Shown: positions 41,430 to 57,546 of the stretch, in pieces
How positions within the stretch are numbered: the stretch's first letter is position 1
Layout of the letters: each line of letters begins with the position of its first letter
Assembly (NCBI GenBank): GCA_000961655.1
Contig: LADR01000065.1
Location: 1 to 64,000, forward strand
Direction of reading: 5' to 3'
From: Desulfatitalea sp. BRH_c12
Lineage (GTDB): Bacteria > Desulfobacterota > Desulfobacteria > Desulfobacterales > Desulfosarcinaceae
DNA: 64,000 nt
Position numbers and translations under genes: made by a program
The notes under the pieces: model-generated
The model's input: only the letters and a program-made list of their open reading frames with translations
Database searches by the model: none
Told to the model about the DNA's origin: nothing

Positions 41430-43406
41430 TCAAGCAGCGTCGATGGCGCGCCGATCCTGCATATCCATCAGGACACGCTCGCGGCCCTTATCCAAGCCCA
41501 GCGCGGCGCGTTTTTTGTCAATGTGTGCAATCATCAGGCGGGCGATGTCATGGGGATGCACCGCAAAACCCCATTTACCGAAGCCCATGCTCTCATACTC
41601 TTCAAAAAGATGTTTGTGGAATTTGGTGCCTTCGACAATCGGGAAGGTGACCCCGAAAACGGTGTACACCCCAGACGCCACAAAGTACTGCCCAATACAG
41701 ATCGCTTTTTCACTCATGTATTCAGGCGCGCACCCGGCCACCGGCAGATCGGCAATGCTGTCGCCCAGACCGCCGGTTCGCACCATCTCCGAAGCGGCGA
41801 TAAGGATGCGGCTGTTGTCGACACACGAGCCGAGGCCCAGCACCGGCGGCATGCCAACGGTTTCGCAGACCTCCTTCAGGCCCGGCCCCGCAAGGTGAGC
41901 GGCTTCGGGGGTGGTCAGTCCGGCTTTGGCCAAGGCGATCTGGGCACAGCCGGTCTGAAGGACCAGAACGTCATTCTTGATCAGCTCTTTGACCAACTCC
42001 ACGTGCACCCAGTCCTGTTTGATGCGTGCATTGGTGCACCCGACCACGCCGGCCACGCCACGAATGCGGCCATTGATAATGTTGTCGTTCAACGGAGTGT
42101 AAGAGCCGCGGAAAGAACCGCCCAGCATGTAGTTGATGTACTCGTGTGAAAAGCCGTGGACGCCGGTGTTGACGTTGCGCGGAATTTCGACTTTGGCGGT
42201 GCGGTTTTTGAAACGTGAAATGGCCTTGATCACGATCTCGTCCGTGCTTTTCTTGGGATCGTGATCGTGGAACTCGATATGCATGGCCCCTTCGATTTTG
42301 CAGCGCGGGTTGGTGGTGATCAAGTGCGTGCCATAGCATTGAGCGACTTTAACCAAACCCTGTTTGATGCATTGGACATCCACGGCCATGGCGTCGACAG
42401 CACCGGTGATAAGGATGGCTTCGGTCGACATGAAGCTGCCGGCGTGCGGAATGCCATGACGCACCAGCACTTCGGCGCCCGAGCAGCACATTCCGGCCAA
42501 GTTGATGCCTTTTGCGCCGGCCGCCTTCGCAGCCGCGATCAAGGTGGGTTCGTGGACCGATTCGATCATCGACTCAAACAGATTGGGCTCATGGCCATGG
42601 ATGATGATATTGACCTGATCTTCCTTGAGCACGCCCATATTGACTTCGACACTGACCGGAGAAGGGGTGCCGAACAGAATGTCGGAGATTTCGGTGGCCA
42701 CCATCGAGCCGCCCCATCCGTCGGCCAGGGCCGTGCGGCTGATCTGCCGGGTGATGTTGGTGTAATCCTGGTCGACACCCATGTGGGTGCGATGCATCAG
42801 ATCCATGATTTCGCGCATCGCCCCGCGTGGCACAACTCCCTGTTTTCGCCAGGTTTCCAGTGTCTTGGGCGGAACGCGCTTGGCAAACGGGATTTCGCCA
42901 TCCACCGCGGTGTAGGTGCGCTCCAGCGCCTCATACAGATCGATGGCGATTTCCTTGGTGGAACGTCCTTCGGTTTCGATGCCAATGGATTGCGCGACCG
43001 ATTCCAGCTTTTGAACATCCTTGATGACGTAATCTTTAATATTGCCGTTGACCACTTCGCGGAACAGATCGAGCATGCTCATGCCATGGTCGGTGTGCGC
43101 GGCGCCGCCGGCAGCGACCATACGGGCAAAATTGCGGGCCATGATCGTGTCGATGGTTGCGCCGCAGACACCCACTTTGCCATAAGGGTCCTTGGCATTC
43201 AGGCGGCAGGGCCCCATGAAGCAATGTTTGCAACAGGCCGAATCGGCACCGATCGGGCATGCCTTCATGTTCACGGCGCGATCAAAGGCCGTTTCCACGC
43301 CATCACGCCGTCCTTTGGCGATCATTTGTTGGGTGGCGTCACAGGTGGTCAGGTCCCCCACCGGGACTTCTATTTTCTCTGCAACGATTTTTTTCTTGAT
43401 GTCCAT
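41430..43406 (-). CDS. cooS: anaerobic Ni-Fe carbon monoxide dehydrogenase CooS
   Basis: A 658-residue Ni-Fe CO dehydrogenase, oxidising CO to CO2 with ferredoxin as likely acceptor. The D- and B-cluster cysteines are all present and correctly spaced (ACPIGADSACCKHC, then MGPCR, then GVCGA). The C-cluster ligands are HGHEPNL, CCSGAEVL, DVQCIKQGL, VVGCTNARI, QTGCAQIAL and LGSCVDNSR. So the enzyme should be active. AAGGAGGCTTT precedes the ATG. No cooC, cooF or acetyl-CoA synthase gene lies within several kb, so it is a stand-alone cooS. The convergent PAS activator and the glutaredoxin/FTR pair are its nearest neighbours. Confidence 0.97.
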   Translation of the reverse strand: MDIKKKIVAEKIEVPVGDLTTCDATQQMIAKGRRDGVETAFDRAVNMKACPIGADSACCKHCFMGPCRLNAKDPYGKVGVCGATIDTIMARNFARMVAAGGAAHTDHGMSMLDLFREVVNGNIKDYVIKDVQKLESVAQSIGIETEGRSTKEIAIDLYEALERTYTAVDGEIPFAKRVPPKTLETWRKQGVVPRGAMREIMDLMHRTHMGVDQDYTNITRQISRTALADGWGGSMVATEISDILFGTPSPVSVEVNMGVLKEDQVNIIIHGHEPNLFESMIESVHEPTLIAAAKAAGAKGINLAGMCCSGAEVLVRHGIPHAGSFMSTEAILITGAVDAMAVDVQCIKQGLVKVAQCYGTHLITTNPRCKIEGAMHIEFHDHDPKKSTDEIVIKAISRFKNRTAKVEIPRNVNTGVHGFSHEYINYMLGGSFRGSYTPLNDNIINGRIRGVAGVVGCTNARIKQDWVHVELVKELIKNDVLVLQTGCAQIALAKAGLTTPEAAHLAGPGLKEVCETVGMPPVLGLGSCVDNSRILIAASEMVRTGGLGDSIADLPVAGCAPEYMSEKAICIGQYFVASGVYTVFGVTFPIVEGTKFHKHLFEEYESMGFGKWGFAVHPHDIARLMIAHIDKKRAALGLDKGRERVLMDMQDRRAIDAA

Positions 43407-43720: not shown

Positions 43721-43975
43721 ATGACCGACGATCCGGTGAAAGTGTATAGTCTGAGCACATGCAGCCATTGCAAATCCACCAAGCGTTTACTCAACGAGTG
43801 CACAGTGAAATACGAGTTTGTAGATGTGGATCTGCTCGAAGGCGATGAGCGCAGAGCGATCCTGGAAGATGTCAAAAAGTTCAATCCGAAATGCTCCTTT
43901 CCCACGATCATCATCGGTGAAAAAGTCATCGTGGGATACAAGGAAAACGAAATCAAGGAGGCCCTGGGATTGTGA
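43721..43975 (+). CDS. glutaredoxin-like thiol protein
   Basis: An 84-residue thioredoxin-fold protein. The redox motif is YSLSTCSHCKSTKRLL (CSHC, about residues 14-17). It is followed by a strand-helix VKYEFVDVDLLEGDERRAI and the cis-Pro SFPTIIIGEKVIVGYKE (about 61-77), all typical of glutaredoxin-like proteins. GAAAGGACAGGACAT precedes the ATG at 43721, and an upstream extension is not supported. The stop codon overlaps the FTR start by one base. The pair suggests that FTR reduces this glutaredoxin with ferredoxin electrons. Confidence 0.88.
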   Translation: MTDDPVKVYSLSTCSHCKSTKRLLNECTVKYEFVDVDLLEGDERRAILEDVKKFNPKCSFPTIIIGEKVIVGYKENEIKEALGL

Positions 43976-44307: not shown

Positions 44308-44366
44308 TAGCCACGCCATTCCCACTGAACGGGTACTTTGTTGCGCACCTCGCAAGATTGGGGCTC

Positions 44367-44389
44367 AAGGGGGAGAACCGTTCCCCCTT
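44367..44389. terminator. hairpin after the FTR gene
   Basis: AAGGGGGA, a 7-nt loop and TCCCCCTT form an 8-bp GC-rich stem 60 bp after the FTR stop and 34 bp beyond the flavodoxin gene stop on the other strand. No T run is present, so termination is likely but not certain. Confidence 0.5.
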
Positions 44390-44423
44390 GGTGCGTATGT
44401 TCTTTACTGACGCTGTGGTCCCA

Positions 44424-44876
44424 TCACTGCACGACTGTGAGTTTTTCCGCCAGTGCTTTTCCATAATCCTGACATGCCTTAATGCCCTCCGGTGAGTCAA
44501 TGATGTGTTCTTTCAGGTTGAGCGCCCCCAGATCGACCATGTCCATCTTGTAGACGTGCTGCATGGTGTCGTAAATCATCGGCCCGGATTCGCCACTGTG
44601 CGTGTAGGAGCAAAATGCGGCTCCCATTTTGCCGGTTAAATTGGCTTTCTGGGCCAGGAACAGGAAGTTCTTCATGCCGGTGGTCATATCACGGTGGTAC
44701 GTGGGGCATCCGAATACAAAGCCATCATAGCCACTCAGTTCGCTCTCGCTGCTGATGTCGGCAATTTTGCGGATTTCGGTCTGCAATCCGGTCATTCGAA
44801 TGCCCTCAGCGATGAAGTTGGCCATTTTCTCCGTCATACCGGTCCTGCTGATATACGCGACAAGAATCTTACTCAT
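44424..44876 (-). CDS. flavodoxin-like protein
   Basis: A 150-residue flavodoxin/FMN-binding protein. The FMN phosphate loop is SRTGMTEKMANFIAEG (about residues 10-25), with FGCPTYHRDMTTG (about 58) and FCSYTHSGESGPM (about 92) forming the rest of the FMN pocket. The ATG at 44876 follows AAAGGGAGAAACATTT. A 34-residue upstream extension is unlikely. It would carry low-potential electrons in place of ferredoxin, or act as a quinone/FMN reductase. The gene stands alone and convergent to the FTR gene. Confidence 0.9.
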   Translation of the reverse strand: MSKILVAYISRTGMTEKMANFIAEGIRMTGLQTEIRKIADISSESELSGYDGFVFGCPTYHRDMTTGMKNFLFLAQKANLTGKMGAAFCSYTHSGESGPMIYDTMQHVYKMDMVDLGALNLKEHIIDSPEGIKACQDYGKALAEKLTVVQ

Positions 44877-45402
44877 AAATGTTTCTCCCTTTGGATGGAT
44901 GGTGAATGGAGAGACCAAATGACTGCTCCATACCGTGTGGGCTATCAATAAGTATGCCATCGTCTGTGCGCGGTCCAAAAGCCGGTGAGCTTCGCCGGGC
45001 GCATTTCATCAGGTGCGGTTAACCGCGGGGGCTCCGCGCGCAACCTGAAAAAGCAAAACTGGTTATCATCTTCGGTCAAGCGAGATACGGTTAGGGGTGA
45101 CGTAGAAAAACCCCCGGTGATCCGGGTGGGTGGTCCGCGCCACCCACCCGGATCACCTCCTGCGTGCCAATCCCGAAAACGTTAATAGTCACTGAGCGAA
45201 CTGGATAACCAAAAAGTCAAAATGACGAGACGGCTATGCCAAGTGTATCAGACGTTGTGCATCGTGAGACACAGCTGTCTCAGGTGAGTCGCACATTGGG
45301 AGACGGCATTCTTTTGAATACGCCGAGGATGCCGGCCCCTGGCGGATCGTGCAGGAGGTTCGAGGCGGTTTTAATATGGGCAAACCGAAATCGACCGGTT
45401 CG
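44877..45402. repeat. intergenic region with family-1 and family-2 repeats
   Basis: About 525 bp with no supported gene. It has a family-2 short palindrome at 45111-45175 (GGTGATCCGGGTGGGTGGTCC, CGCGCCACCCACCCGGATC). It is preceded by a segment GGGGTGACGTAG-AAAACCCCCGG, also found near 39700. Directly after it comes a family-1 end (TAGTCACTGAGCGAACTGG then ATAACC, 45187-45210). The order of parts is the same as in the gap at 39680-39798. Confidence 0.75.
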
Positions 45403-46629
45403 TCACCCGAACTTATCGTAGGCGACCATTTCCGGTTCCACGCCCAGGTCATACAGCATGCTTTCCACGGCGGCGATCATGGGCGGTGGGCCGCAAAGAT
45501 AATATTCAATTTCAGTCGGGTCGGGGTGCTTGGCCAGATAGGTGTCCCTGGCCACCTGATGGATGAAGCCGACCGGCCCCTGCCAGTTGTCCTCGGGCAG
45601 TGGATCAGACAAGGCGACACAGTAGGTGAAGTGGGCGAATTTATTTTCGAGAGCCTGAAACTCTTCATGGTAAAACATCTCTTGGCGCGAGCGCGCGCCG
45701 TACCAGAAGCTGATGCGTCGGTGGGTGTTATCGGCCAGCAGTTGCTGGCGCACATGGCTGCGTAGCGGTGCCATGCCTGCGCCGCCGCCGATAAAGCACA
45801 TTTCGCGCTCGGTCGGCCGGGCGAAAAAGTCACCATAAGGACCGCTGATGGTGATGCGGTCGCCCGGTTTGAGATTGAAGACATAGGAGGAGCCAACGCC
45901 GGGGGGCACATCCTTTTTGCCGGGCGGCGGCGTGGCAATGCGAATCGTGAATTTGAGCGTATCGGTTTCGATGGGTGGGTTGGCAAGAGAGTAAGCCCGG
46001 TTGACCGGCTGGTCCGATTTGGCTTTGAGGGTCAGCAGATTGAATTCTTTCCAGGCGGCCTTGTACTTTTCGGCCACGCTGAAGTCCCTGAAATCAGCTG
46101 CATATTCAGGGATGTCGATCTGGATATAGGCCCCGGCTTTAAAGTGAATGGTCTCGCCCGGATCAAGTTTGAGAACCAGTTCCTTGATGAAGGTGGCCAC
46201 ATTGTCGTTGGATACCACGGTGGCATGATATTTCTGGATGCTGAAGATGTCGTCGGGAATGCGGATGGCCATGTCCTGCTTGACCTTGACTTGGCAGGCC
46301 AAACGGATTTGCGCGGCGCGCTCCTTGCGGCTGACCAGCGCGAGTTCGGTGGGCAGGATGTCGCCGCCGCCGTCGAGTACCTTGCATTTGCAAGTCCCGC
46401 AGGTTCCTTTGCCGCCGCAGGCGCTGGGCAGATAGATCTGGTTATCGACAAGGGCGCCCAGCAGGGTTTTGCCGGCCGGGGTCGTGACTGCTTTGGCGTC
46501 ATCCCCGTTGATCACGATGCGTCGGTCGCCTTTGACGGTCAGACGCGCCTCTACCAGCAGCAGGATGCCCACGAGCGTCAGGACGACGCTTAAAAACACA
46601 GCCAGACTGATCAGGAATATCATCGGCAT
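45403..46629 (-). CDS. nqrF: Na+-translocating NADH:quinone reductase subunit F
   Basis: A 408-residue membrane-anchored subunit where NADH gives its electrons. One membrane segment sits at about 4-26 (IFLISLAVFLSVVLTLVGI). A [2Fe-2S] ferredoxin domain (about 35-125) has cysteines in ACGGKGTCGTCKC and RLACQVKV. An FAD/NADH domain of the ferredoxin reductase type (about 130-400) has RAYSLANPP and GPYGDFFARPTE and the pyridine-nucleotide stretch MCFIGGGAGMAPLRSH. The C-terminal CGPPPMIAAVESMLYDLG is typical. It is the last gene of nqrABCDEF. Confidence 0.95.
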   Translation of the reverse strand: MPMIFLISLAVFLSVVLTLVGILLLVEARLTVKGDRRIVINGDDAKAVTTPAGKTLLGALVDNQIYLPSACGGKGTCGTCKCKVLDGGGDILPTELALVSRKERAAQIRLACQVKVKQDMAIRIPDDIFSIQKYHATVVSNDNVATFIKELVLKLDPGETIHFKAGAYIQIDIPEYAADFRDFSVAEKYKAAWKEFNLLTLKAKSDQPVNRAYSLANPPIETDTLKFTIRIATPPPGKKDVPPGVGSSYVFNLKPGDRITISGPYGDFFARPTEREMCFIGGGAGMAPLRSHVRQQLLADNTHRRISFWYGARSRQEMFYHEEFQALENKFAHFTYCVALSDPLPEDNWQGPVGFIHQVARDTYLAKHPDPTEIEYYLCGPPPMIAAVESMLYDLGVEPEMVAYDKFG

Positions 46630-46739: not shown

Positions 46740-47348
46740 TTACAGCGTAATGCCCGAAAAGAGCATGAACGCCATGGCCATCAGGCCGGTTACGATCATG
46801 CGGATGCCAAATCCCTGCAGGCCGGTGGGGATGTCGGCATAGCGCAGTTTTTGCATTATGGTGGCCATGGCCACGATAGCCATCAGCCAGCCGACCCCCG
46901 ATCCGAATCCATACACCACGGTTTCGACGAAAGTGTAGCGGCGTTCGACCATGAACAGGGCCGCGCCTAAAATAGCGCAGTTCACGGTGATGAGCGGTAG
47001 AAAAACCCCTAACGCATTGTAAAGCCCCTGTGAATAACGGTCGATGACCATTTCGACCACCTGCACAATGCCAGCGACCGTAGCGATAAACAGCACCAGC
47101 TTCAAAAAGCTCAGGTCGATCTGGGGCAGTCCGGCCCACGCCAGGGCGCCGGGCGCCAGCAGGTAATGGTACAGCAGCCAGTTGACCGGTGTGGTGATGG
47201 TCATGACAAAGGTGACCGCCAACCCCAATCCCAAGGATGTGCGCAGGTTGTTGGAAACCGACAGATACGAGCACATGCCTAAAAAGTAGGCCAGCAAAAT
47301 GTTTCCGACAAAAACGGAGTTGACGAACAAACTGATCAGGTTTTCCAT
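46740..47348 (-). CDS. nqrE: Na+-translocating NADH:quinone reductase subunit E
   Basis: A 202-residue inner-membrane subunit with about six hydrophobic helices. Cys in [11 protein letters not shown] (about 26) and Cys in [12 protein letters not shown] (about 120) are two of the four residues, shared with NqrD, that hold the intramembrane [2Fe-2S] centre of NQR. The membrane repeats [10 protein letters not shown] and [14 protein letters not shown] match NqrE/RnfA. The gene is 2 bp downstream of nqrD. Confidence 0.95.
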
Positions 47349-47349
47349 T

Positions 47350-47973
47350 TTATTTGTCCTTCAACAGAGCATGTTCGAGCCACACAAACAGACCGATCAT
47401 AATGAAAGCGCCCGGAGCCAGCAGCAGCAGCCCCATGTTGTGATAGCCGGCCTGGTAGAAGCTTTCCGGGATAACCGGATAGCCGAACAGTTTGCCGGAA
47501 CCCAGCAACTCCCGAAAAAAGGCCACGCCGCATAAGATGGCGCCATAGCCGATGCCATTGGCCAGGCCGTCCGCGAAACTGCGCCCGGGCGAATTGCTCA
47601 TGGCAAATGTTTCCGCGCGGCCCATCACGATGCAGTTGGTGATGATCAATCCGACAAAAACCGACAGTTGTTTGCTGATGTCGTACATAAAGGCGCGCAG
47701 GAACTCATCGGCAAGGATCACCAGGGTGGCGATGACGGCCACTTCCACGATGATGCGGATATTGCGCGGAATATGATTGCGCAAAAGCGAAATGATCAGG
47801 TTTGAGAAGGCGACGACCAGGGTCAGCGCGATGCCCATGACCAGCGCCGTCCTCAGCTGGACCGTAACGGCCAGGGCCGAACAGATTCCCAGGATCTGCT
47901 TGGATATGGGATTGGATTGCCAAAGCGCTTCGGAAATGGCTTTGTACGTGAAACTTTTGCTGAGCATGCCCAT
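47350..47973 (-). CDS. nqrD: Na+-translocating NADH:quinone reductase subunit D
   Basis: About 207 residues, an inner-membrane subunit homologous to NqrE. Cysteines [11 protein letters not shown] (about 28) and [11 protein letters not shown] (about 113) are the other ligands of the NqrD/E [2Fe-2S] centre. I take the ATG at 47973, which has GGGAG 11 bases upstream. A longer frame toward nqrC is not supported. The gap of about 160 bp to nqrC holds a CTGCAGGGGCGACAGGCGG hairpin-like piece near 48101. Confidence 0.93.
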
Positions 47974-48132
47974 TGCAGTCCGAACTCCCTTTGCTGAATT
48001 ATCCTTAAAACGCCTGGCCGTAGCTTGGCGACTTGCCAATGATTCGATTCTCTGTGAGGTTCCTTCCTTAACGAAGCGGCCCCTTGACGGCGGCATTCAC
48101 CTGCAGGGGCGACAGGCGGTCTCCCGTTGCGG

Positions 48133-48834
48133 CTATAACCCCACGTCCTTCTGACGGAACTGAACCGCTATCGGTTCATAGGCCTCGAGGATTTCTTGCA
48201 TGCCTTCACTTAGAAATTTACCGGTCAATGTGGCGCCGCTGATGCCATCCACATAGTTGCTGCGGATGTCGGAAGGCATGCGATCGTCCACACTGCCTTT
48301 GGCGATGCGGACCGATACGAAATCACCTCCGGCGTTGACAATCTTTTTGCCTGCGAAATTCTTGCGAAACCAGCGGCTCTCTATCTCTCCGCCAAGTCCG
48401 GGCGTCTCCTGATGCTGGTATACCGTGAAGCCGCGAATGGTACTGCCGTCGTTTTCGATGGCCAGATACCCGTGGATGGTACCCCACAAGCCCCTGCTGT
48501 CGATGGGCACAACATACGCCTGTACTGTATCGTTTTTAGAAAAGATGTACAGCGGCAGCGCGCGGGGGCCGCGCAAATTTTCAGCGACGCTGCGCCCGCT
48601 CTCGTCGACCCAGACGCTGCGCACATTGTGACGATACAGCTGTTGTGTCTCGGCTGCCGATATGGTTTGCGCGTCATCGATGATGCCAAAGGCTTTGAGA
48701 ATGTTTTTTTGGCGGTCCACTTCCATGTTTTGCTGCTGGCGCGCCTTGAGCCCAGTGCTGGCGGCCGTGAGCAGAAGGCTGCAGACCACGCATAAAAGGG
48801 TTGCAAAAAGCAGTGATTTCATTCTGTTGGGCAT
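48133..48834 (-). CDS. nqrC: Na+-translocating NADH:quinone reductase subunit C
   Basis: About 233 residues. One N-terminal membrane segment (LLFATLLCVVCSLLLTAAS) anchors a periplasmic domain with covalently bound FMN. The FMN-attachment motif SGATLTGK is near residue 205, with Thr at the end of the SGATLT. Family motifs TIHGYLAIENDGSTIRGFTVY and HQETPGLGGEIES are clear. The start MPNRMKSLL at 48834 is chosen for the membrane segment placement; the ribosome site is weak. Confidence 0.93.
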   Translation of the reverse strand: MPNRMKSLLFATLLCVVCSLLLTAASTGLKARQQQNMEVDRQKNILKAFGIIDDAQTISAAETQQLYRHNVRSVWVDESGRSVAENLRGPRALPLYIFSKNDTVQAYVVPIDSRGLWGTIHGYLAIENDGSTIRGFTVYQHQETPGLGGEIESRWFRKNFAGKKIVNAGGDFVSVRIAKGSVDDRMPSDIRSNYVDGISGATLTGKFLSEGMQEILEAYEPIAVQFRQKDVGL

Positions 48835-48906
48835 TTTACACCGATTCCGGGGTTGCCGGTGTTGAAAAGTAAAAGTGGAAACCATACTGACGAATGCGAT
48901 GCCACC

Positions 48907-50091
48907 TTACACATTGGGTATTCTCTGGCGAATGCGCGTCGCGACCACCAGTTGATCGAGCAGCGGGGCAAAGACATTCAAGAACAATATGGCCAGCATG
49001 ATCCCTTCGGGAAACGCCGGATTGAACACCCGTATCAGTACCGTCAGAATGCCGATCAGCAATCCATAGATCCAGCGCGCCGCATGGGTATGCGGGGCGG
49101 ATACCGGATCGGTGGCCATGAAGACGATACCGAAGGCGGCCCCGCCGATCACCAGATGGTAAAATGGATTAAGGCTCAAGTAGGGCAGGGCGGTCGGTCC
49201 CGAGAATAACATGAGCAGGTATCCGGCAGCCAGCACACCCAAGGTGCCGCCGAGAATGATGCGATAACTGGCGATCCCCAGCAGGATCAATCCCATGGCG
49301 CCGATCAGGCACAGCAAGGCGGAGGAGGCGCCGATGCTGTCGGGATAAAAGCCCAAAAAAAGGGTCCGCCAATCATACCCGGCGGCAGCCAAGGTCTCTT
49401 CCACGGTGCCGGCGGTCGATGCAACCGAGGCGATCACCAGCGGTGTCGCGGCCGTGACAGCATCGACAGCTTGCGATCCGGCGTTCAGGACAGCCGTCCA
49501 GACGGCATCTCCCGACATCTGGATGGGATAGGCGAAGTATAAAAAGGCCCGCCCGGTCAGGGCCGGATTGAGGAAGTTGCGTCCGGTGCCGCCGAACACC
49601 TCCTTGCCGATGACAACGCCGAAAGAGATGCCCAACGCAGCCTGCCACCAGGGTGTGGTCGGTGGCAATGTCAGCGGAAAGAGCATGGCGGTGACAAAAA
49701 CCCCTTCGCTGATCGGGTGCTTGCGAACGGCGGCAAAGACGATTTCCCACCCGAACCCGAAAACATAGGAGATGATCACCAGCGGCAAAACCGTTTGGGC
49801 ACCATACAGGAACATGGGCCAGAACGAGGGCGGTTGGCCGCTGGCTTTGAACGCCTGCAAACCGACATTGTACATGCCGAAAAAGAGACACGGCAACAAC
49901 ATGACAATCACCAGCATCATGTAGCGCTGAAGGGTGATGCTGTCGCGCGCATGTGGCGCGAAGGCCGTTACTTGGTCCGTGCCGAAGAAAACCCTTTCCA
50001 TTGCTTCGAAGAAGGAATCCAGTCGTGCCAGCCGGCCGCCGGGACGGAAATGCTTTTTCTGACTGTGAAAAAAATGTCGTATCGGATTCAT
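48907..50091 (-). CDS. nqrB: Na+-translocating NADH:quinone reductase subunit B
   Basis: A 394-residue polytopic membrane subunit carrying FMN and riboflavin. The FMN threonine motif is VDAVTAATPLVIAS (about residue 220), where most NQR have SGATPL. The membrane helices include VLPLVIISYVFGFGWEIVF and ILLLGI-type stretches, and the Na+-pathway region is about 320-380 (FMATDPVSAPHTHAARWIYG). It lies between nqrA (27 bp) and nqrC and belongs to the operon. Confidence 0.94.
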   Translation of the reverse strand: MNPIRHFFHSQKKHFRPGGRLARLDSFFEAMERVFFGTDQVTAFAPHARDSITLQRYMMLVIVMLLPCLFFGMYNVGLQAFKASGQPPSFWPMFLYGAQTVLPLVIISYVFGFGWEIVFAAVRKHPISEGVFVTAMLFPLTLPPTTPWWQAALGISFGVVIGKEVFGGTGRNFLNPALTGRAFLYFAYPIQMSGDAVWTAVLNAGSQAVDAVTAATPLVIASVASTAGTVEETLAAAGYDWRTLFLGFYPDSIGASSALLCLIGAMGLILLGIASYRIILGGTLGVLAAGYLLMLFSGPTALPYLSLNPFYHLVIGGAAFGIVFMATDPVSAPHTHAARWIYGLLIGILTVLIRVFNPAFPEGIMLAILFLNVFAPLLDQLVVATRIRQRIPNV

Positions 50092-50118: not shown

Positions 50119-51477
50119 TTATTCGGATCTTTTCATTTGTTCGCGGGCATAAGACGCCTTGGCATTGCCGAAAATACGGCTCAACTCGATTTTGGACGGA
50201 CACACGTACGAACATAGTCCGCAATCCACGCAGTCCAGCAGTCCAAGCTGGAGATACTCTTCCACTTCCTCGACGGCGATGGCCTTGAACACCATATGGG
50301 GCAGCAGATCCACCGGGCAGACATCGGCACAGTGCATACAGGCAATGCAGGCGCGGGCATCGCCATGCAGATTACAGTCGTACAGCAGTGGTGCGGGGTT
50401 GAGTTTGGAAAGGAAGATGCGCGAATAACTGGGTTTGCGGAAACCGGGCGTGAACAGGGCCAGAAATTCAGCCTGCCCGCCCGCAGGCACCAGGTTCAAA
50501 GCGGTTTCGTACAGCCCCATGAAATCTTCCTGCGAAGCGGTGTGTCCGCGCAGCATGCCGCCCACGATCCAGCGCGCGGGCTGGATTATTTGGCTTGGAT
50601 CGGCCAAGTGGGACAGTGGGGTTCCCAGGCGTGTCAGAAAATGTCCGGGTGCGGGCGCGGCGCTGCCGCCGACGGTCATAACCCGTTGGGTGGGATAGCG
50701 GCCGTCGCGCAACAGTTCGGCCAGTAGCATCAGATCCTGCCCGGCAACGTACCAGGCACGATTCTCGGAGGCTTGGGTCTTGATACTGTACAAGACGGCG
50801 CCCGGGTCGTCACTGGGGTAGGCCCCCTCGACGGTATGGGTCAGCCAGTCGCGGCCGCGCGCGATCAGGGCGTGATCGGCGGCATCGGCGAAAACAACCA
50901 GCTTGCCGCCGCATAATTTGGATAGAACCTTCAACCCAAACGCGAACAGATCTTCCCGGCCGTGAAGATAGACATCGGCCGCGGGCGAGAACGGTTCTTT
51001 GGCATCCAGTCCCACCAAGATAAGCGGCGGACTGTTTTCGGGTGCGGGCAGATCGCGAAAGGGCAACTCTCGAAAGACCCACCACAGGCCGCCGTCCAGA
51101 ATGCGAGCGACCAGAGCCTTGCGATCGATCGTCGCCAGGGCGTCGTTGGAAAGGGCCTCGAACCCGACACGCGGCTCTTGTCCAGATTGCCGTTCGATAA
51201 TGATGGCCTGGATTGTGCGGCGCGGACCGAACCGTATGCGGCGCACCGTGCCGCCCGCTGGGGACAGGAACTTGAAGCGCGGTTCGCGTTTGTCCTCGAA
51301 CAAGACCGACCCGATGCGCACAGGATCTCCTTCGGCAACATGCAGGCGCGGTTTTATATGCGGAATCTTGTCCGGTAAAGCCGCCAGTTGTTCCGGGTCG
51401 GGGAGGCACTTCAGTGTGGTCGAGGGACGTCCGGCAATGTTGAACCGATAACCTCTTTTTACAATCACATTATCCAT
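50119..51477 (-). CDS. nqrA: Na+-translocating NADH:quinone reductase subunit A with two [4Fe-4S] motifs
   Basis: A 452-residue cytoplasmic subunit. The NqrA core is clear: VKRGYRFNIAGRPS, HVAEGDPVRIGSVLFEDK (about 50), FLSPAGGTVRRIRFGPRR and DGGLWWVFRELPFRDLPAP (about 137). The C-terminus carries two full cysteine motifs, C377/C380/C383/C387 (CIACMHCADVCP) and C416/C419/C422/C426 (CVDCGLCSYVCP). The known NqrA proteins lack these, but RnfC has them. The RnfC glycine-rich NADH/FMN motif is absent here, so it is NqrA-like in its core and RnfC-like at its end. The ATG at 51477 matches the usual NqrA start. It is the first gene of the nqr operon. Confidence 0.94.
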   Translation of the reverse strand: MDNVIVKRGYRFNIAGRPSTTLKCLPDPEQLAALPDKIPHIKPRLHVAEGDPVRIGSVLFEDKREPRFKFLSPAGGTVRRIRFGPRRTIQAIIIERQSGQEPRVGFEALSNDALATIDRKALVARILDGGLWWVFRELPFRDLPAPENSPPLILVGLDAKEPFSPAADVYLHGREDLFAFGLKVLSKLCGGKLVVFADAADHALIARGRDWLTHTVEGAYPSDDPGAVLYSIKTQASENRAWYVAGQDLMLLAELLRDGRYPTQRVMTVGGSAAPAPGHFLTRLGTPLSHLADPSQIIQPARWIVGGMLRGHTASQEDFMGLYETALNLVPAGGQAEFLALFTPGFRKPSYSRIFLSKLNPAPLLYDCNLHGDARACIACMHCADVCPVDLLPHMVFKAIAVEEVEEYLQLGLLDCVDCGLCSYVCPSKIELSRIFGNAKASYAREQMKRSE

Positions 51478-52011: not shown

Positions 52012-53193
52012 ATGGAAGATGATTGCAAACCGGCACTTAATACCGGTTTACGCGGTGTGACCGTTGCCAGCACCAAAGTCAGCGACGTGATTGGTGATCT
52101 GGGCAAATTGATCTACCGCGGCTATTTGGTATCCGACTTGGCCAACAAAGCGAGTTTTGAAGAGATCGTGCATCTGTTGCTGTTTGAGAAGTTGCCCAGC
52201 CACAGCGAACTGGATGATATGAAAGCACGCCTGGTGGCCGAACGGGACATCCCGCCCGCCATCATAGATGCGCTCAAGACGCGACCGGCGGATGCCCTGC
52301 CAATGGATATTTTGCAGGCAGCCGCGGCCATGCTGGCCAATCATGACAAGGACGTAAACGATCCTTCGCACGATTCGGTGATGCGCATGGCCATCCGTTT
52401 GATTGCCAAGCTGCCTACCGTTTTGGCTGCCTGGGAGAGAATCCGCAATGGCAAGGCGCCGATTGCACCGGACCCGGAGTTGGATCATGCGGCCAATTTT
52501 CTTTACATGTTGTTCGGCGAAAGACCTACCCCCGAACTGGTTCATTTCTTCGATGTCACCCTGCTCCTGCATGCCGAGCATTCGTTCAATGCATCGACTT
52601 TCGCCGCGCGGGAAGTCGCTTCAACACGGGCCCATATTTATGCGGCGGTATCGGCCGCCATCGGGTCGCTCTCAGGAGAGCTGCACGGCGGCGCCAATGT
52701 ACGCGTCATGCGCATGCTGCTGGAAATCGGCAGTCCCGAAAACGCTGAAACCTATGTTGAACAGATCCTGAGTGAGGGCAAAAAAATCATGGGCTTAGGG
52801 CATGCGGTGTATAAAACTGATGATCCGCGGGCGCATATCCTGGCGCCGATGTCCAAGCGGGCCGGCGAATTGGCCGGCGATACACGCTGGTACGAGATCT
52901 CCAGGATTCTGGAAGAAAAGGGGAAAAAGGCTTTTAAGGAGCGCAAGGGCACCGATATTTTCGTGAACGTCGATTTTTACAGTGCTTCTCTTTACTACTC
53001 CATGGGGATACCGGTGGACCTGTATTCGCCCCTGTTTGCCATAGCGCGGGTGGCCGGCTGGACTGCGCATGTTCTTGAAGAGCAGTTTGCGGGGGCGGCG
53101 CCCAAACCCATGCTCTACCGGCCCGAATCCAGATACATTGGCGAATACTGCGGACCGGCCGAATGCAGTTTCGTTCCAATTGAAAAACGCTGA
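52012..53193 (+). CDS. gltA: citrate synthase
   Basis: A 393-residue citrate synthase joining oxaloacetate and acetyl-CoA. The three active-site residues are seen: His in LLHAEHSFNAS (about 190), His in GLGHAVYKTDDPRA (about 264) and Asp in IFVNVDFYSASLYY (about 322). Its length is like that of the short (type II/archaeal or 2-methylcitrate-like) enzymes, so a methylcitrate synthase role cannot be excluded. AAAGGAGGCACTG precedes the ATG. It is followed at once by a strong palindrome and the PerR-like gene. Confidence 0.93.
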   Translation: MEDDCKPALNTGLRGVTVASTKVSDVIGDLGKLIYRGYLVSDLANKASFEEIVHLLLFEKLPSHSELDDMKARLVAERDIPPAIIDALKTRPADALPMDILQAAAAMLANHDKDVNDPSHDSVMRMAIRLIAKLPTVLAAWERIRNGKAPIAPDPELDHAANFLYMLFGERPTPELVHFFDVTLLLHAEHSFNASTFAAREVASTRAHIYAAVSAAIGSLSGELHGGANVRVMRMLLEIGSPENAETYVEQILSEGKKIMGLGHAVYKTDDPRAHILAPMSKRAGELAGDTRWYEISRILEEKGKKAFKERKGTDIFVNVDFYSASLYYSMGIPVDLYSPLFAIARVAGWTAHVLEEQFAGAAPKPMLYRPESRYIGEYCGPAECSFVPIEKR

Positions 53194-53199
53194 TGTGAC

Positions 53200-53226
53200 G
53201 TTGCCCACGCCCAGGGCGTGGGCAAC
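53200..53226. terminator. hairpin between citrate synthase and the PerR-like gene
   Basis: GTTGCCCACGCCC and GGGCGTGGGCAAC form a perfect 13-bp palindrome with a one-base centre, starting 7 bp after the citrate synthase stop. There is no T run. The next gene starts 36 bp on. It could be a terminator or a partial block. Confidence 0.6.
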
Positions 53227-53261
53227 GCACGCATATTACACAGCTGGTCAGGAAAAATAAG

Positions 53262-53720
53262 GTGCAGGATCTGAATCGAACGGACAAAGTGCGTATGACG
53301 CAACAGCGGCGCGTCATACTTGAGGCGTTGCGCAGGGACAACATTCATCCGACCGCTGATGCGATCTATGAAATGGTACGCAGGCGCCTGCCGCGCATCA
53401 GCCTGGGAACCGTCTATCGAAATCTCGAAATTCTGACGGCGCTAGGCGAAATCCAAACCCTTGAAATGAGCGGCAGTCAGAAGCGCTACGACGGCATTGC
53501 CCAAAAACACTATCATATCAGGTGCGTGCACTGCGGGCGCGTGGATGATGCCCCGATTGCGCCCTTGAACCGACTTGAAGACGAACTTTACGGTGCTACC
53601 GTGTATACGATCATGGGCCACCATCTCGAATTCGTGGGTTTGTGCCCTGAATGCTCTCAAAACGAAGAGGCGCAGCGCTTTGCCGAGCGGCACCTGTCCA
53701 TGCCTTCGGAATCTCCATAA
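53262..53720 (+). CDS. PerR-like Fur-family regulator
   Basis: A 152-residue metal-dependent repressor. The winged-helix part is about 1-80 (MTQQRRVILEALRRD, ISLGTVYRNLEILTALGEI). The metal/Zn part has KRYDGIAQKHYHIRCVHCG (about 76-94) and GLCPECSQNEE (about 127), two CXXC zinc motifs as in PerR. The His-X-His/Asp set also fits PerR, which senses peroxide by His oxidation at its Fe site. It starts with GTG after AGGAAAAATAAG. It precedes rubrerythrin, desulfoferrodoxin and other oxygen-defence genes and may control them. Confidence 0.87.
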   Translation: MQDLNRTDKVRMTQQRRVILEALRRDNIHPTADAIYEMVRRRLPRISLGTVYRNLEILTALGEIQTLEMSGSQKRYDGIAQKHYHIRCVHCGRVDDAPIAPLNRLEDELYGATVYTIMGHHLEFVGLCPECSQNEEAQRFAERHLSMPSESP

Positions 53721-53734
53721 TTATTGATAATGAC

Positions 53735-54094
53735 TCAACTGTTGTTCAGTTCTTTGCGGAGCCACTCTTTCACAATGCCTTCAACTGCATACACGCCCTT
53801 CAGTTGTCCGTTTTCTTTTACGAATGCCTTCTTGATGGCCGCCGGCATTTCAATCTGGGCTAACTCCTTGGCACCTTCGGAATTGCGCCGGATCAGATAG
53901 ATGATCGGCGATTCTTTCCATGTGCTGACGGCGAAATAGCAGGTTTCGTCATTCTTTGATCGAATCACATAGTTTCCGCGCGACCAGTTGTTTCCCCATT
54001 CCAGGTACAGGCGCACGGCTTCTTCCGGCGTCATCTCCCAGTCGATGGCGTTCAACAGGTCGGGATCTTGCTTAAGTTTCTCGAGAGTGCTCAT
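53735..54094 (-). CDS. DVU0772-like small conserved protein
   Basis: A 119-residue soluble protein. It resembles the DVU0772 family of sulfate reducers as I remember it: STLEKLKQDPDLLNAIDWE, MTPEEAVRLYLEWGNNWSRG, ESPIIYLIRRNSEGAKELAQ and GVYAVEGIVKEWLRKEL are all typical. Its role is unknown. The ATG at 54094 is chosen because it matches that start; a longer frame adds 20 residues. It is convergent with the PerR-like gene and its stop lies 15 bp away. Confidence 0.8.
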   Translation of the reverse strand: MSTLEKLKQDPDLLNAIDWEMTPEEAVRLYLEWGNNWSRGNYVIRSKNDETCYFAVSTWKESPIIYLIRRNSEGAKELAQIEMPAAIKKAFVKENGQLKGVYAVEGIVKEWLRKELNNS

Positions 54095-54509
54095 ATCATG
54101 TCCCTTCTGATTCTTTACATCTTTAATAGTAGGTGTGCCCAGGGGGTTGTGCAAGTAGTATGCCTCGCAACCGGCGCCCCCGGAGGGTGAGGGCTACCCG
54201 CCTCGCTGGCCAGACATATAGAAAGCCAAGGGGTAAAGGATATGTATCGAGAGACAGATGTGTATCGAGGCGCTCGCTTGTGTTGTGAGACAGATTGCAA
54301 TCGCTGAAAACATGCGTTGACGCGGGTGACATCCTCTGATTGAATATCAGTCTACGCTACGGCTGAGGCCGATCCGGGCTTTTACGCTGATATGCCGGCA
54401 CTGTTATGGGGCGCTCGTCTACACGCAACCGGGATGTTTTACTTGGCATGGCTTTTGAAACGGGAACGTTGACTATTGGGTCAAGTCCTCTTTCATCGGA
54501 GACAATTGC
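54095..54509. other. intergenic region, no gene supported
   Basis: About 415 bp between the DVU0772-like gene and the next small gene. I see no family-like frame and no RNA gene. It should hold promoters for both sides. Confidence 0.55.
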
Positions 54510-54758
54510 GTGCTGAAAGCGTGTGATCAGAACATCCAGAAAATGCTCCTGCTGACGCAGGAGATGATGCGTCTGGCGGATCAAGGCGACGCCGACCGCG
54601 AAGACACCGGCTGCGGCATTCTTTACGGAATGTTGCGCGATTCGGCATACAAGCTGTCGCGAATGGCGGAAGAAGAGAAAAAAAGACACCAGGAAAAAGG
54701 GTGGTGGCCAGCCGACGGACCGCAATGTCCGGGCGCCTCGGGCGCCCCCACAAGATAA
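54510..54758 (+). CDS. small helical protein of unknown function
   Basis: An 82-residue protein of unrecognised family. It starts with GTG at 54510 after CGGAGACAATTGC. It is rich in Glu, Lys, Met and Leu (NIQKMLLLTQEMMRLADQG, GCGILYGMLRDSAYKLSRMAEEEKKRH) and likely all-helical. The last 15 residues are Pro/Gly-rich. It lies 45 bp before the rubrerythrin gene, on the same strand, so co-transcription is probable and a role in the same stress response can be supposed. Confidence 0.6.
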   Translation: MLKACDQNIQKMLLLTQEMMRLADQGDADREDTGCGILYGMLRDSAYKLSRMAEEEKKRHQEKGWWPADGPQCPGASGAPTR

Positions 54759-54803
54759 TTCAATGAGACAATCAACAAGCTCTTAACCCAAGGAGGAATC
54801 GAA

Positions 54804-55379
54804 GTGGCATCATTGGAAGGAACGCAAACCGCAAAGAATCTGTTGGCCTCTTTCGCAGGAGAATCACAAGCGCGCAACCGGTACACCTATTTCGCAGGCA
54901 AGGCCCGCAAAGAGGGATTCGTTCAGATTGCCGATATTTTCGAAGAAACCGCCAACCAGGAGAAGGAGCATGCCAAACGCTTTTTCAATTTTCTGGAGGG
55001 CGGTGATCTTCAGATCGTGGCCGCTTTTCCGGCCGGCATCATTGCCAGCACGCTGGACAACCTGAAATCGTCGGCTGACGGCGAACGTCACGAACACATC
55101 GAAATGTACCCTGAATTTGCAAAGATAGCCCGCCAAGAAGGGTTTGAAGCCATGGCAATGGTTTGGGAAGCTGTTTGCGTGGCGGAAAAGCAGCATGAAA
55201 AGCGTTTTCGTGATCTGGCGGCCAACATCGCCGCGGGAGCGGTTTTCAAACGCGCCCAACCGGTCGCATGGCGCTGTCGCAATTGCGGGTACGTGCACGA
55301 AGGCCAGGAAGCACCTCAGATGTGTCCGGCCTGCGCGCATCCTCAGGCCCATTTTGAATTGCTCGGAGAAAACTGGTAG
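54804..55379 (+). CDS. rubrerythrin
   Basis: A 191-residue non-haem di-iron peroxidase. It reduces hydrogen peroxide with electrons from a rubredoxin. The ferritin-like di-iron domain has [17 protein letters not shown] (Glu ligands, about 19), [15 protein letters not shown] (about 50), [12 protein letters not shown] (about 97) and [13 protein letters not shown] (about 130). A C-terminal rubredoxin-like domain has [10 protein letters not shown] and [11 protein letters not shown] (about 158-182). It starts with GTG after AAGGAGGAATCGAA. It is the first of a run of oxygen-defence genes. Confidence 0.95.
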
Positions 55380-55414
55380 ATAGTATTAAAACCCTAAACA
55401 CGAAGGAGGCATCA

Positions 55415-55789
55415 ATGACCCAGAGATTGGAAGTGTACAAGTGTAATTTGTGCGGCAATATCGTCGAAGTGCTTCATGCCGGCCCCGGAGAATTGGTCTG
55501 CTGCGGGGCACCCATGGTCTGTATGCAAGAAAATACGGTCGACGCGGCCAAGGAAAAGCATGTACCGGTCATCGAGAAAATCGAGGGCGGGGTAAAGGTG
55601 AAAGTGGGCAGTGCCGCCCACCCCATGGAAGAAAAGCACTATATCGAATGGATCGAGATTGTTGCCGATGGCAAAGTGTATCGCCAATTTCTGAAGCCGG
55701 GCCAGGCACCCGAAGCGATCTTCATGGTCGCGGCGGACAACGTGACCGCCCGGGAGTATTGCAACATTCATGGTCATTGGAAGTCCTGA
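55415..55789 (+). CDS. dfx: desulfoferrodoxin (superoxide reductase)
   Basis: A 124-residue superoxide reductase that reduces superoxide to hydrogen peroxide, with rubredoxin as the donor. The N-terminal desulforedoxin domain has four cysteines (YKCNLCGN and VCCGAPM). The catalytic domain has [14 protein letters not shown] (His ligands, about 68-81) and [16 protein letters not shown] (Cys and His ligands, about 107-122). It is the two-Fe (1Fe-Dx plus 1Fe-SOR) type. AAGGAGGCATCA precedes the ATG. It follows rubrerythrin by 35 bp, so one transcript is probable. Confidence 0.96.
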
Positions 55790-55837
55790 TTCCCCTTGCA
55801 GGCAAACGATCGTTCTTTAGATGAGAAGAACATTCAA

Positions 55838-55869
55838 CCGTCGGGGCGAATCACCGTTCGCCCCGACGG
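55838..55869. terminator. hairpin between desulfoferrodoxin and the rubredoxin-like gene
   Basis: CCGTCGGGGCGAA, a 6-nt loop and TTCGCCCCGACGG form a 13-bp perfect stem. It lies 48 bp after the desulfoferrodoxin stop. The GGGGCGAA/TTCGCCCC core also occurs at about 27506-27530 (AGGGGCGAACC then GTGTTCGCCC), so this may be a dispersed hairpin used as a terminator. Confidence 0.6.
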
Positions 55870-55898
55870 CAAACATTTGATTACAGAAGAGGTGATCC

Positions 55899-56054
55899 AT
55901 GGCAAACTGGAAATGTGCGAATTGCGGCTACGAAATGGAAGCGGAAAAACCGCCGGAGCGCTGTCCTTCTTGTAAACAGGCATGCGAATTTCTGGATAAT
56001 ACCTGCTACACACCTGACTGCCAGGGTGGTGGCAAAGATCCCCGCATCAAATAA
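55899..56054 (+). CDS. rubredoxin-like small protein, six or more cysteines
   Basis: A 51-residue protein. It has the rubredoxin-type knuckles CANCGY (about 6-11) and CPSCKQAC (about 22-29), and more cysteines at NTCYTPDC (about 36-41). The length and the GGY/CGYEME part are like rubredoxin, but the extra cysteines and missing central tryptophan/aromatic region are not. It could carry one iron plus a second site or be a small zinc protein. AGAAGAGGTGATCC precedes the ATG. It lies between desulfoferrodoxin and cydA on the same strand. Confidence 0.75.
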
Positions 56055-56165
56055 ACAACCGGTTGGCTTCGATCCATTTCCCACGGTCCCACGGGGAAAA
56101 GCGTTGGGGTAAATCTATATCACCCCGTAAATTGCATAAAGCCATCATTGTCTGAGGAGGGTTTG

Positions 56166-57509
56166 ATGGATCCCGTTTTTTTATCGCGACTGCAATTTGC
56201 CGCCGCCACCATGTTCCATTTTTTGTTCGTGCCGCTGACGCTCGGCCTTTCCGTCCTGGTCGCTTACATGGAAACCCGCTACGCGCGCAGCGGTGATGAA
56301 ACCTATCTGCGCATGACCAAATTCTGGGGTAAGCTTTTTTTGATCAACTTCGCCTTGGGCGTGGTAACCGGGATCACCCTGGAATTTCAATTCGGCACCA
56401 ACTGGTCGCGATACTCGGCCTTTGTCGGCGACATCTTCGGCTCACTGCTCGCCATCGAGGCAACCGTCGCCTTCTTTCTGGAGTCGATTCTGATCGGTGT
56501 TTGGGTTTTCGGATGGAAAAAACTCTCCCGCAAAGCGCATGCGGCTGTCATGTGGCTGGTCGCCGGTGCCGGAAACATTTCAGCTCTGTGGATTCTGATC
56601 GCCAATGGCTGGATGCAGCAGCCGGTCGGCTATGTGCTGCGCAACGGACGCGCCGAGCTCAACGACTTTGCCGCCGTGGCCTTGAATAAGTTCGCACTGC
56701 TGGAATTCTTCCATACGGTGCCGGCAGCATTCATCCTGGGCAGTTTCTTCGTGATGGGCATCAGCGCCTATCATCTGCTGAAAAAACAGAATATCGATTT
56801 TTTCACCCGCTCTTTTCGGATAGCCTTGGTATTGGGTTTCATCTCTTCCGTATGGGTCATTATCGAAGGCGATCAGCATGCTATCCACGTCACCCAGGTG
56901 CAACCGACCAAACTGGCCGCCATGGAAGCCCACTGGGAAACCAGCCGGGAGGCGCCCATGTTCCTGCTCACGCTGCCCGATGAAGCCAATGAGCGCAACT
57001 ACTTTGAGTTCGGCCGTTTGCCCGGGCTGCTCAGTTTTCTGGGCTATCACGACGTCAATGCCGAGGTACGCGGCTTAAAAGATTTTGCGCGCGACGAGCG
57101 CCCGCCGGTATTGCTCACCTTTATAGCCTTTCGGACCATGGTGATTTTGGGGACGCTTTTCCCGTTGCTGACCCTGATCGGGTGGTTTTTACGACACCGG
57201 CTGATCGAAAACCGTTGGTATCTGATGATCATGGTGGCCGCCATACCCCTGCCTTACCTTGCCATTCAGGCCGGATGGGTCGTCGCGGAAGTCGGGCGCC
57301 AGCCGTGGATTGTCTACGGGCTGCTCAAGACCGCTCAGGCCGCGTCACCCGTGACCGGTGGCCAGGTGCTGTCTTCGCTGATCGCATTCATTCTGGTGTA
57401 TGGCCTTTTAGGTCTGACGGGTTTTTTCCTCATTGCCCAAACAGCGATCAAGGGGCCAAAGGCTGTCCAGCCTGATGCACCCGAGATCCTGCGCGTGAGC
57501 GCACCCTGA
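56166..57509 (+). CDS. cydA: cytochrome bd ubiquinol oxidase subunit I
   Basis: A 447-residue membrane subunit with haems b558, b595 and d that reduces oxygen to water. Haem ligands are visible in FAAATMFHFLFVPLTLG (His about 19) and LEFFHTVPAAFILG (His about 183). The quinol site and charged relay are GDQHAIHVTQVQPTKLAAMEAHWET. GRQPWIVYGLLKT (about 377) is the family signature. It is short, so it is of the short Q-loop type. The ATG at 56166 follows GAGGAGGGTTTG. In an anaerobe it defends against oxygen. Confidence 0.96.
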   Translation: MDPVFLSRLQFAAATMFHFLFVPLTLGLSVLVAYMETRYARSGDETYLRMTKFWGKLFLINFALGVVTGITLEFQFGTNWSRYSAFVGDIFGSLLAIEATVAFFLESILIGVWVFGWKKLSRKAHAAVMWLVAGAGNISALWILIANGWMQQPVGYVLRNGRAELNDFAAVALNKFALLEFFHTVPAAFILGSFFVMGISAYHLLKKQNIDFFTRSFRIALVLGFISSVWVIIEGDQHAIHVTQVQPTKLAAMEAHWETSREAPMFLLTLPDEANERNYFEFGRLPGLLSFLGYHDVNAEVRGLKDFARDERPPVLLTFIAFRTMVILGTLFPLLTLIGWFLRHRLIENRWYLMIMVAAIPLPYLAIQAGWVVAEVGRQPWIVYGLLKTAQAASPVTGGQVLSSLIAFILVYGLLGLTGFFLIAQTAIKGPKAVQPDAPEILRVSAP

Positions 57510-57546
57510 CGACCGAGATAACCCATACCAAATTACGGGGGCATGT

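What the first reader, a model, noticed from the sequence alone, without database searches (positions are those of the whole stretch)
50119..51477. NqrA carries two intact RnfC-type [4Fe-4S] cysteine motifs
The C-terminus of this NqrA (452 residues) has C377/C380/C383/C387 and C416/C419/C422/C426, each CXXCXXCXXXCP, coded at about 50200-50349. Well-studied Na+-NQR NqrA proteins have lost these clusters, while the related RnfC keeps them. The operon order (A to F) and NqrF with its ferredoxin and FAD domains show that this is an NQR, not an Rnf. It may be an NQR that kept an Rnf-like electron entry, or that takes electrons from ferredoxin, for instance from the nearby CO dehydrogenase. An evolutionary intermediate is also possible.
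Basis: partly seen in the sequence, partly recalled or inferred. Interest (0 to 1): 0.85.

Follow-up and report, generated by a model that had tools for sequence, protein, structure and literature searches.

The report
Sodium pump subunit keeping iron-sulfur sites
A sodium-pumping respiratory enzyme of sulfate-reducing bacteria still carries two sites for iron-sulfur clusters in a subunit described in print as having lost all its electron carriers, so this bacterial group may run an older, differently wired version of the pump.

Summary
The 452-residue NqrA (50119-51477, minus) has C377/380/383/387 and C416/419/422/426, in a complete nqrABCDEF operon. This is a clade-wide trait, almost all of it in Desulfobacterales. 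All eight cysteines are invariant in 61 of 61 sequences under 90% alike; the motifs are absent from 35 of 35 distinct classical NqrA, most of which still carry two leftover cysteines. The RnfC flavin loop is gone, so the Fe-S pair stays without FMN or NAD. Two deeper genomes hold nqr-type operons (one with NqrF in view) whose A subunit is RnfC-like and Fe-S-bearing. Trees place Rnf first, then those two, then classical NQR and this clade as sisters, but nesting of the clade within classical NQR is not rejected. Best reading: an old NQR that kept the Fe-S exit of Rnf after taking NqrF, used as a second electron port between NqrB riboflavin and an unknown cytoplasmic carrier. Ferredoxin or CO dehydrogenase as partner is unproven: cooS lies nearby in 15 of 25 nqr genomes, but also occurs without nqr. 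No paper found reports this clade. No iron content, activity or structure has been measured.

The parts
50119..51477 (-). nqrA, 452 aa, NqrA with a C-terminal 2x[4Fe-4S]-type domain
   Evidence: translation; PF05896, PF24836 and Fer4 dicluster models
50317..50349 (-). codons of C377 to C387, first CX2CX2CX3C motif
50200..50232 (-). codons of C416 to C426, second CX2CX2CX3C motif
48907..50091 (-). nqrB, flavinylation-type motif DAVTAAT at residue 210
   Evidence: NCBIfam nqrB over cut-off; motif search
48133..48885 (-). nqrC, flavinylation-type motif DGISGAT at residue 213
   Evidence: NCBIfam nqrC over cut-off
47350..48096 (-). nqrD (ORF; homology begins near residue 50, so the real start is probably internal)
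   Evidence: NCBIfam nqrD over cut-off, match from residue 50-51; alignment to V. cholerae NqrD
46740..47348 (-). nqrE
   Evidence: NCBIfam nqrE over cut-off; alignment to V. cholerae NqrE
45403..46629 (-). nqrF with N-terminal hydrophobic stretch, 2Fe-2S, FAD and NAD domains
   Evidence: NCBIfam nqrF 557.9 bits against cut-off 295; Pfam domains; alignment to V. cholerae NqrF from residue 6 to 408
41430..43406 (-). cooS-type CO dehydrogenase, frequent same-strand neighbour downstream of nqrF; link to NqrA not shown
   Evidence: TIGR01702 586 bits, over cut-off; neighbourhood counts
52012..53193 (+). citrate synthase, divergent neighbour of nqrA in many relatives
   Evidence: PF00285; 26 of 48 loci with at least 3 kb upstream

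Best explanation
This is a Na+-NQR of an old lineage whose NqrA still binds two [4Fe-4S] clusters inherited from an RnfC-like ancestor. Electrons from NADH enter at NqrF and pass through NqrD/E, NqrC and NqrB as in other NQRs (inferred from conserved subunits). At the riboflavin of NqrB they can go to the quinone or, as in Rnf, to the two clusters in the C-terminal domain of NqrA (inferred by homology with RnfC). Because the RnfC flavin loop is lost, the clusters cannot hand over to FMN and NAD+ in the RnfC way; they most likely exchange electrons with a soluble cytoplasmic carrier that is not yet known. The enzyme would then be a pump with three electron ports: NADH, quinone and a cytoplasmic one-electron carrier. 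Shown: motifs, conservation, pattern of occurrence, loss of the flavin loop. Inferred: cluster binding, the port, its direction and its partner.
For: Eight cysteines invariant in 61 of 61 dereplicated members, while majority-residue conservation averages 0.58 in residues 1-365 and 0.74 in 366-445. Motifs in 61 of 64 named loci; of the other three one is truncated, one breaks off after the first motif and one is classical. The two clusters of RnfC bridge the riboflavin of RnfD and the FMN of RnfC (review section read). The flavin loop GxGGAxFP is in 27 of 28 RnfC and in 0 of 61 members, 0 of 35 classical NqrA and 0 of 2 deep ones. Classical NqrA keep the last two cysteines in 25 and 31 of 35, as after a loss. 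AlphaFold2 model with mean pLDDT 88.4, matching V. cholerae NqrA (TM 0.89) and RnfC (TM 0.72). In the same genome a second complex, Rnf2-like, also has an RnfC with both motifs and no flavin loop, and a paper says such an RnfC needs a partner other than NAD (section read).
Against: No iron, EPR, structure or activity data exist here. Residues 331-380 of the model have pLDDT about 55 and 421-430 have 68, so cluster geometry was not tested. No gene is a constant neighbour that could be the partner. Only 8 NqrB columns set the clade apart from classical NQR, and nothing in them points to a special wiring. Outside the Fe-S domain the clade is no more RnfC-like than classical NqrA: of 123 columns conserved in RnfC, 4 are kept only here and 3 only in classical NqrA. 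AU tests do not reject nesting of the clade inside classical NQR.
Confidence: 0.5

Rival explanations
1. The clusters are bound but only structural: they hold the C-terminal domain of NqrA together and pass no electrons; NADH to quinone is the only reaction.
For: Classical NQR works without the clusters, and a published review gives NqrA no redox role. NqrB and NqrF are NQR-like over their length.
Against: All eight ligands are invariant in 61 of 61 and the whole Fe-S domain is better conserved than the rest; V. cholerae NqrA has a solved structure without clusters, so a structural need is not obvious.
Confidence: 0.25
2. NqrA takes electrons from reduced ferredoxin, for instance produced by the neighbouring CO dehydrogenase, and passes them to riboflavin and quinone.
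For: cooS lies downstream on the same strand within 15 kb of nqrA in 15 of 25 genomes with an nqrA match (coordinates, counted) and in 12 of 27 dereplicated loci with at least 9 kb downstream.
Against: cooS over cut-off also occurs in genus members without an nqrA match (G001, G007, G009, G010). Other frames with a CX2CX2CX3C motif lie near in 5 of 61 loci by called ORFs and 8 of 61 by short open frames, none conserved; 2Fe-2S ferredoxins were not looked for. The block also holds glutaredoxin, ferredoxin:thioredoxin reductase and oxygen-defence genes, so the synteny may be general.
Confidence: 0.15
3. The clusters were regained, by exchange of the C-terminal end with an RnfC, rather than kept.
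For: Phylogenies do not reject placing the clade among classical NQRs (p-AU 0.40 to 0.48). Outside the Fe-S domain there is no excess of RnfC-like residues over classical NqrA (4 against 3 columns), while inside it there is (10 against 1), which an exchange would also give.
Against: Classical NqrA keeps two leftover cysteines (25 and 31 of 35), so their common ancestor had the domain; two deeper nqr-type operons also have both motifs; both trees put the clade outside classical NQR.
Confidence: 0.1

Closest known systems
Na+-NQR of Vibrio cholerae (PDB 7xk3, 8a1u)
   Same: Operon order (order of V. cholerae from print); all six window subunits have NqrA-F as best family, and A, B, D, E, F were aligned to V. 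cholerae chains; NqrF donor module, flavinylation-type motifs, NqrD/E cysteines.
   Different: Its NqrA has no cofactor in print; at the aligned positions six of the eight cysteines are replaced and the last two remain.
Rnf complex, RnfC subunit (PDB 7zc6, 8ahx, 9eri)
   Same: C-terminal domain with two CX2CX2CX3C motifs, 95.6 bits to the RnfC model over 373-445; similar fold.
   Different: No RnfB, NqrF instead; no flavin loop; RnfC model far below its cut-off.
Rnf2 of Desulfobacteraceae
   Same: RnfC with both Fe-S motifs but without the flavin loop; a paper says the RnfC of this type lacks the NADH-related domains, must have an unidentified partner, and that its RnfB carries NAD sites.
   Different: Large RnfB-like polyferredoxin instead of NqrF; separate branch in the tree.
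Divergent nqr-type operons of genomes G082 and G118 (L078, L079)
   Same: nqr-type operon; in L079 a full NqrF (L078 ends on a contig edge before it); A subunit with both motifs and no flavin loop.
   Different: A subunit closer to RnfC (L079: 221 bits to the RnfC model, 97 to the NqrA model) and branching before the split of classical NQR and this clade.

Membership tests
Na+-NQR | Six genes in order nqrABCDEF, subunits B-F over curated cut-offs | tested here: met
Na+-NQR | NqrF with 2Fe-2S, FAD and NADH domains | tested here: met
Na+-NQR | Flavinylation-type threonine motifs in NqrB and NqrC (motif recalled); cysteine pairs in NqrD and NqrE (role) | tested here: met
Na+-NQR | NqrA without redox cofactor sites, as described in print | tested here: not met
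   papers
Na+-NQR | NqrA over the cut-off of TIGR01936 (321 bits) | tested here: not met
   257 bits, but full length; best model NF003761, 381.7 of 450
Na+-NQR | Quinone reduction and Na+ transport | not testable with these tools
   needs purified enzyme; the G141 position of NqrB is F here, but L in 21, G in 11 and S in 3 of 35 classical NqrB, so it is no guide
Rnf complex | RnfB polyferredoxin subunit in the operon | tested here: not met
Rnf complex | RnfC with FMN/NAD site (GxGGAxFP loop) | tested here: not met
Rnf complex | RnfC with two [4Fe-4S] cysteine sets | tested here: met
Rnf complex | Cluster binding in the protein | not testable with these tools
   needs iron content and EPR

The most novel reading that the evidence does not exclude
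Desulfobacterales run a branched sodium pump: an NQR with a second, cytoplasmic electron port made of two [4Fe-4S] clusters in NqrA, so that NADH, quinone and a soluble carrier meet at one riboflavin. This lineage and the deeper operons show that NqrF replaced RnfB and the flavin site was lost before the clusters were lost, contrary to the order proposed in print.
Probability: 0.4. Interest if true: 0.8.

Novelty: new variant of a known kind. Interest (0 to 1): 0.62.

Why it matters
[quoted passage not shown] A lineage that keeps working-looking cluster sites in it gives a natural test of what this subunit did and does. It also bears on the published scenario in which loss of RnfB made RnfC useless, its cysteines vanished and NqrF came next (passage read): here NqrF and the cysteines coexist. 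Desulfobacteraceae are described as main oxidisers of organic carbon in marine sediments (abstract start in the listing), so a second port would change their electron budgets.

Tried and rejected
Selenocysteine: three NqrA matches were flagged with a TGA inside; reading the frames showed the TGA after or at the very C-terminal end, no Sec at a motif cysteine.

Loss of the quinone site as a partner change: NqrB position 141 (V. cholerae numbering) is F here, and a paper says any residue but G would block quinone. But classical NqrB have L in 21, G in 11 and S in 3 of 35 distinct rows, so I dropped this.

More RnfC-like residues as proof of retention: my first list picked columns conserved in the clade and rare in classical NqrA, which is one-sided. 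The mirrored count outside the Fe-S domain gives 4 columns kept only in the clade and 3 kept only in classical NqrA, of 123 conserved in RnfC. I withdrew the argument and raised the regain rival from 0.07 to 0.1.

CO dehydrogenase as dedicated partner: 14 of 61 loci hold cooS; I first noted this as 14 of 27, and the checked figure is 12 of 27 eligible loci plus 2 with shorter flanks. Kept as a rival only.

Firm rooting: both trees show classical NQR as one clade (92/90 and 94/82), but AU tests do not reject the clade joining either half of the classical set, and the program warned of long branches meeting in the NqrA tree. One loss against two is open.

Other phyla: only Desulfobacterota and Bacteroidota genomes could be sampled, plus one Ruegeria operon. 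Chlorobiota, Planctomycetota, Chlamydiota and most Proteobacteria were not. The single genome-contig scan used a pattern from the clade itself, so it cannot count classical NqrA fairly.

Rows dropped: L142, L143, L144 from the conservation set; L025 and L026 lack the C-terminus; a second NqrA-like match in G026 (27% identity) was not fetched; 3 of 33 Bacteroidota matches over cut-off had no locus; L143 and L190 are the same gene and are counted once. The 28 RnfC rows leave out Rnf2-type and short rows. The trees hold 28 of the 61 clade members. L167 (Vibrio campbellii record) gave a lone NqrB and stood only in NqrB sets.

Full report
What is there. The minus-strand gene 50119-51477 codes a 452-residue NqrA with two intact CX2CX2CX3CP motifs at 377-388 and 416-427. 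Pfam assigns NQRA_N to residues 5-95, NQRA_2nd to 118-260 and several dicluster ferredoxin models to about 373-430. The NCBIfam NqrA model covers the protein from 5 to 446 but under its cut-off (257 against 321 bits), and the RnfC model matches only residues 373-445 with 95.6 bits. The five other genes are nqrB to nqrF in order, each over its NCBIfam cut-off. NqrF aligns from residue 6 to its end with the V. cholerae subunit. It is an NQR.

How common. In 40 genomes (own included), 25 gave an NqrA match of the window type; 23 could be read at the C-terminus and all 23 have both motifs, two being truncated. A scan of GTDB species genomes with an alignment of the N-terminal part only, which ends before the Fe-S motifs, gave 64 named loci. 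Of these, 61 have both motifs, one is cut off before them, one stops after the first, and one, a Cytophagales genome, is a classical NqrA without them. Nearly all records are named Desulfobacterales, Desulfobacteraceae or Deltaproteobacteria; one genome of the set, G116, is coded as same phylum but another order. Named isolates with the motifs are Desulfatitalea alkaliphila M08but, Desulfoluna spongiiphila AA1 and Desulfosarcina alkanivorans PL12. The contig of D. alkaliphila has the same length as contig C89 of genome G003, which shares the window's genus code, so the window is probably from Desulfatitalea (inference). After dereplication at 90% identity 61 of 77 sequences remain. All eight cysteines are invariant in 61 of 61; majority-residue conservation averages 0.74 in 366-445 and 0.58 in 1-365.

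How different from classical NqrA. In 297 genomes of the phylum, drawn evenly, the NqrA model finds four classical genes, five of the window type (own included) and two deep ones, L078 and L079; the weaker matches for which loci were given are RnfC. In 148 genomes of the phylum of the Cytophagales genome it finds 33 over the cut-off; the 30 for which loci were given lack both motifs. With four from Desulfobacterota and one from Ruegeria, 35 of 35 distinct classical proteins lack the motifs. Yet C422 and C426 survive there in 25 and 31 of 35, which looks like a relic. A control against my reading: outside the Fe-S domain the clade is not more RnfC-like than classical NqrA (4 against 3 of 123 RnfC-conserved columns). 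The difference lies in the Fe-S domain itself (10 against 1).

What was lost. RnfC has a flavin loop, GxGGAxFP, in 27 of 28 sequences; none of the 61 members, of 35 classical proteins or of the 2 deep ones has it. A review section says that the two clusters of RnfC bridge riboflavin of RnfD and the FMN of RnfC. So in the window clade the bridge is kept and its former end station is gone.

Deep intermediates. L079 has an A subunit and NqrB, NqrC, NqrD, NqrE and a 368-residue NqrF with 2Fe-2S, FAD and NAD domains. L078 ends on a contig edge before any nqrF. Their A subunits have both motifs and no flavin loop. That of L079 scores 221 bits with the RnfC model and 97 with the NqrA model, below both cut-offs. 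Both come from one small family, f63; its class held only these two genomes in the collection.

Trees. NqrB with RnfD (62 rows) and NqrA with RnfC without the Fe-S domain (62 rows) give the same order: Rnf outside, then L078/L079, then classical NQR and the window clade as sisters. Each holds 28 of the 61 clade members and 18 or 19 classical rows. The window clade has support 100/97 and 100/98, the classical clade 92/90 and 94/82. The program warned that long branches meet in the NqrA tree. Adding four Rnf2-type RnfC to a smaller set leaves this order unchanged. AU tests do not reject joining the window clade to either half of the classical set (p 0.40, 0.46, 0.48, 0.44). So retention is favoured over regain by the leftover cysteines and the deep operons, but one loss or two is not settled. 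The published scenario has RnfB lost first, RnfC becoming useless and losing its sites, and NqrF recruited next; it also notes early-branching, 'anomalous' Desulfobacteraceae NQRs (passages read). Coexistence of NqrF and intact cysteines in the window clade and in L079 speaks against that order.

Structure. An AlphaFold2 model from 53 sequences has mean pLDDT 88.4 and pTM 0.89, but residues 331-380 are near 55 and 421-430 at 68. Foldseek ranks V. cholerae NqrA first (TM up to 0.89 by model length) and RnfC next (0.71 to 0.72). Cluster geometry was not tested.

Function. The most likely mechanism is a second electron port between NqrB riboflavin and an unknown cytoplasmic carrier. A parallel exists in the same genome: an Rnf2-like operon (L202) with an RnfC that has both motifs and no flavin loop and a 693-residue RnfB-like protein. 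A paper on Desulfococcus multivorans says an RnfC of this type must have a partner other than NAD, not yet identified, and that its RnfB carries NAD sites (section read). NQR of the window type has the same logic: NAD at one cytoplasmic subunit, Fe-S only at the other. That the L202 complex is this Rnf2 is my inference.

Partner. Frequent neighbours are citrate synthase (26 of 48 loci with 3 kb upstream), a Fur-type regulator (21 of 61 loci), rubrerythrin (14), desulfoferrodoxin (12), and cooS downstream (12 of 27 loci with 9 kb downstream). cooS lies downstream on the same strand, 5.7 to 11.7 kb from nqrA, in 15 of 25 genomes with nqrA. But over-cut-off cooS is found in 35 of 40 genomes, including genus members without nqrA, so the link is weak. 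No ferredoxin of the CX2CX2CX3C kind is a conserved neighbour (5 of 61 loci by called ORFs; 8 of 61 by short frames). Flavodoxin-like genes of 146 to 184 residues follow nqrF in five loci including the window, a possible carrier that I could not test.

Literature. Nine searches listed no paper whose title or opening abstract reports Fe-S motifs in NqrA. I read passages of PMC4014512, PMC12174285, PMC9588780, PMC10643135, PMC11889175, PMC2702500, PMC6037941, PMC5109826 and PMC11887813, and one whole section in each of three of them. Four state that NqrA has no cofactors or has lost them.

Noticed in passing
L079 (G118:C106) 2140-7618 and L078 (G082:C299) 935-5153: Deeply branching nqr-type operons; L079 has a full NqrF. 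The A subunits are Fe-S-bearing; that of L079 is RnfC-like and falls below both the NqrA and the RnfC cut-offs.
   Followed up: partly
L202 6309-12604 (G000:C18): Rnf2-like operon in the window's own genome: RnfC with both Fe-S motifs but no flavin loop, and a 693-residue RnfB-like protein.
   Followed up: partly
window 52012-58575: Citrate synthase, Fur-type regulator, rubrerythrin, desulfoferrodoxin and cytochrome bd oxidase subunits I and II lie next to nqr, an oxygen-defence setting for the NADH:quinone pump of a presumed anaerobe.
   Followed up: partly
window 43583-44978: Glutaredoxin, ferredoxin:thioredoxin reductase catalytic chain and a flavodoxin-like protein sit between nqrF and cooS; the first two recur in 10 and 12 of 61 related loci, a short flavodoxin-like gene after nqrF in 5 (window included).
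   Followed up: no
L167 4887-6236 (Vibrio campbellii NZ_CP050465.1): A lone NqrB gene; no nqrA was recognised in the 11 kb fetched and the other large frames do not look like NQR subunits.
   Followed up: no
G026:C17:29074-30384: A second NqrA-like match (27% identity) in a genome that also has a window-type match, truncated before the motifs; not fetched, possibly two NQRs in one genome.
   Followed up: no
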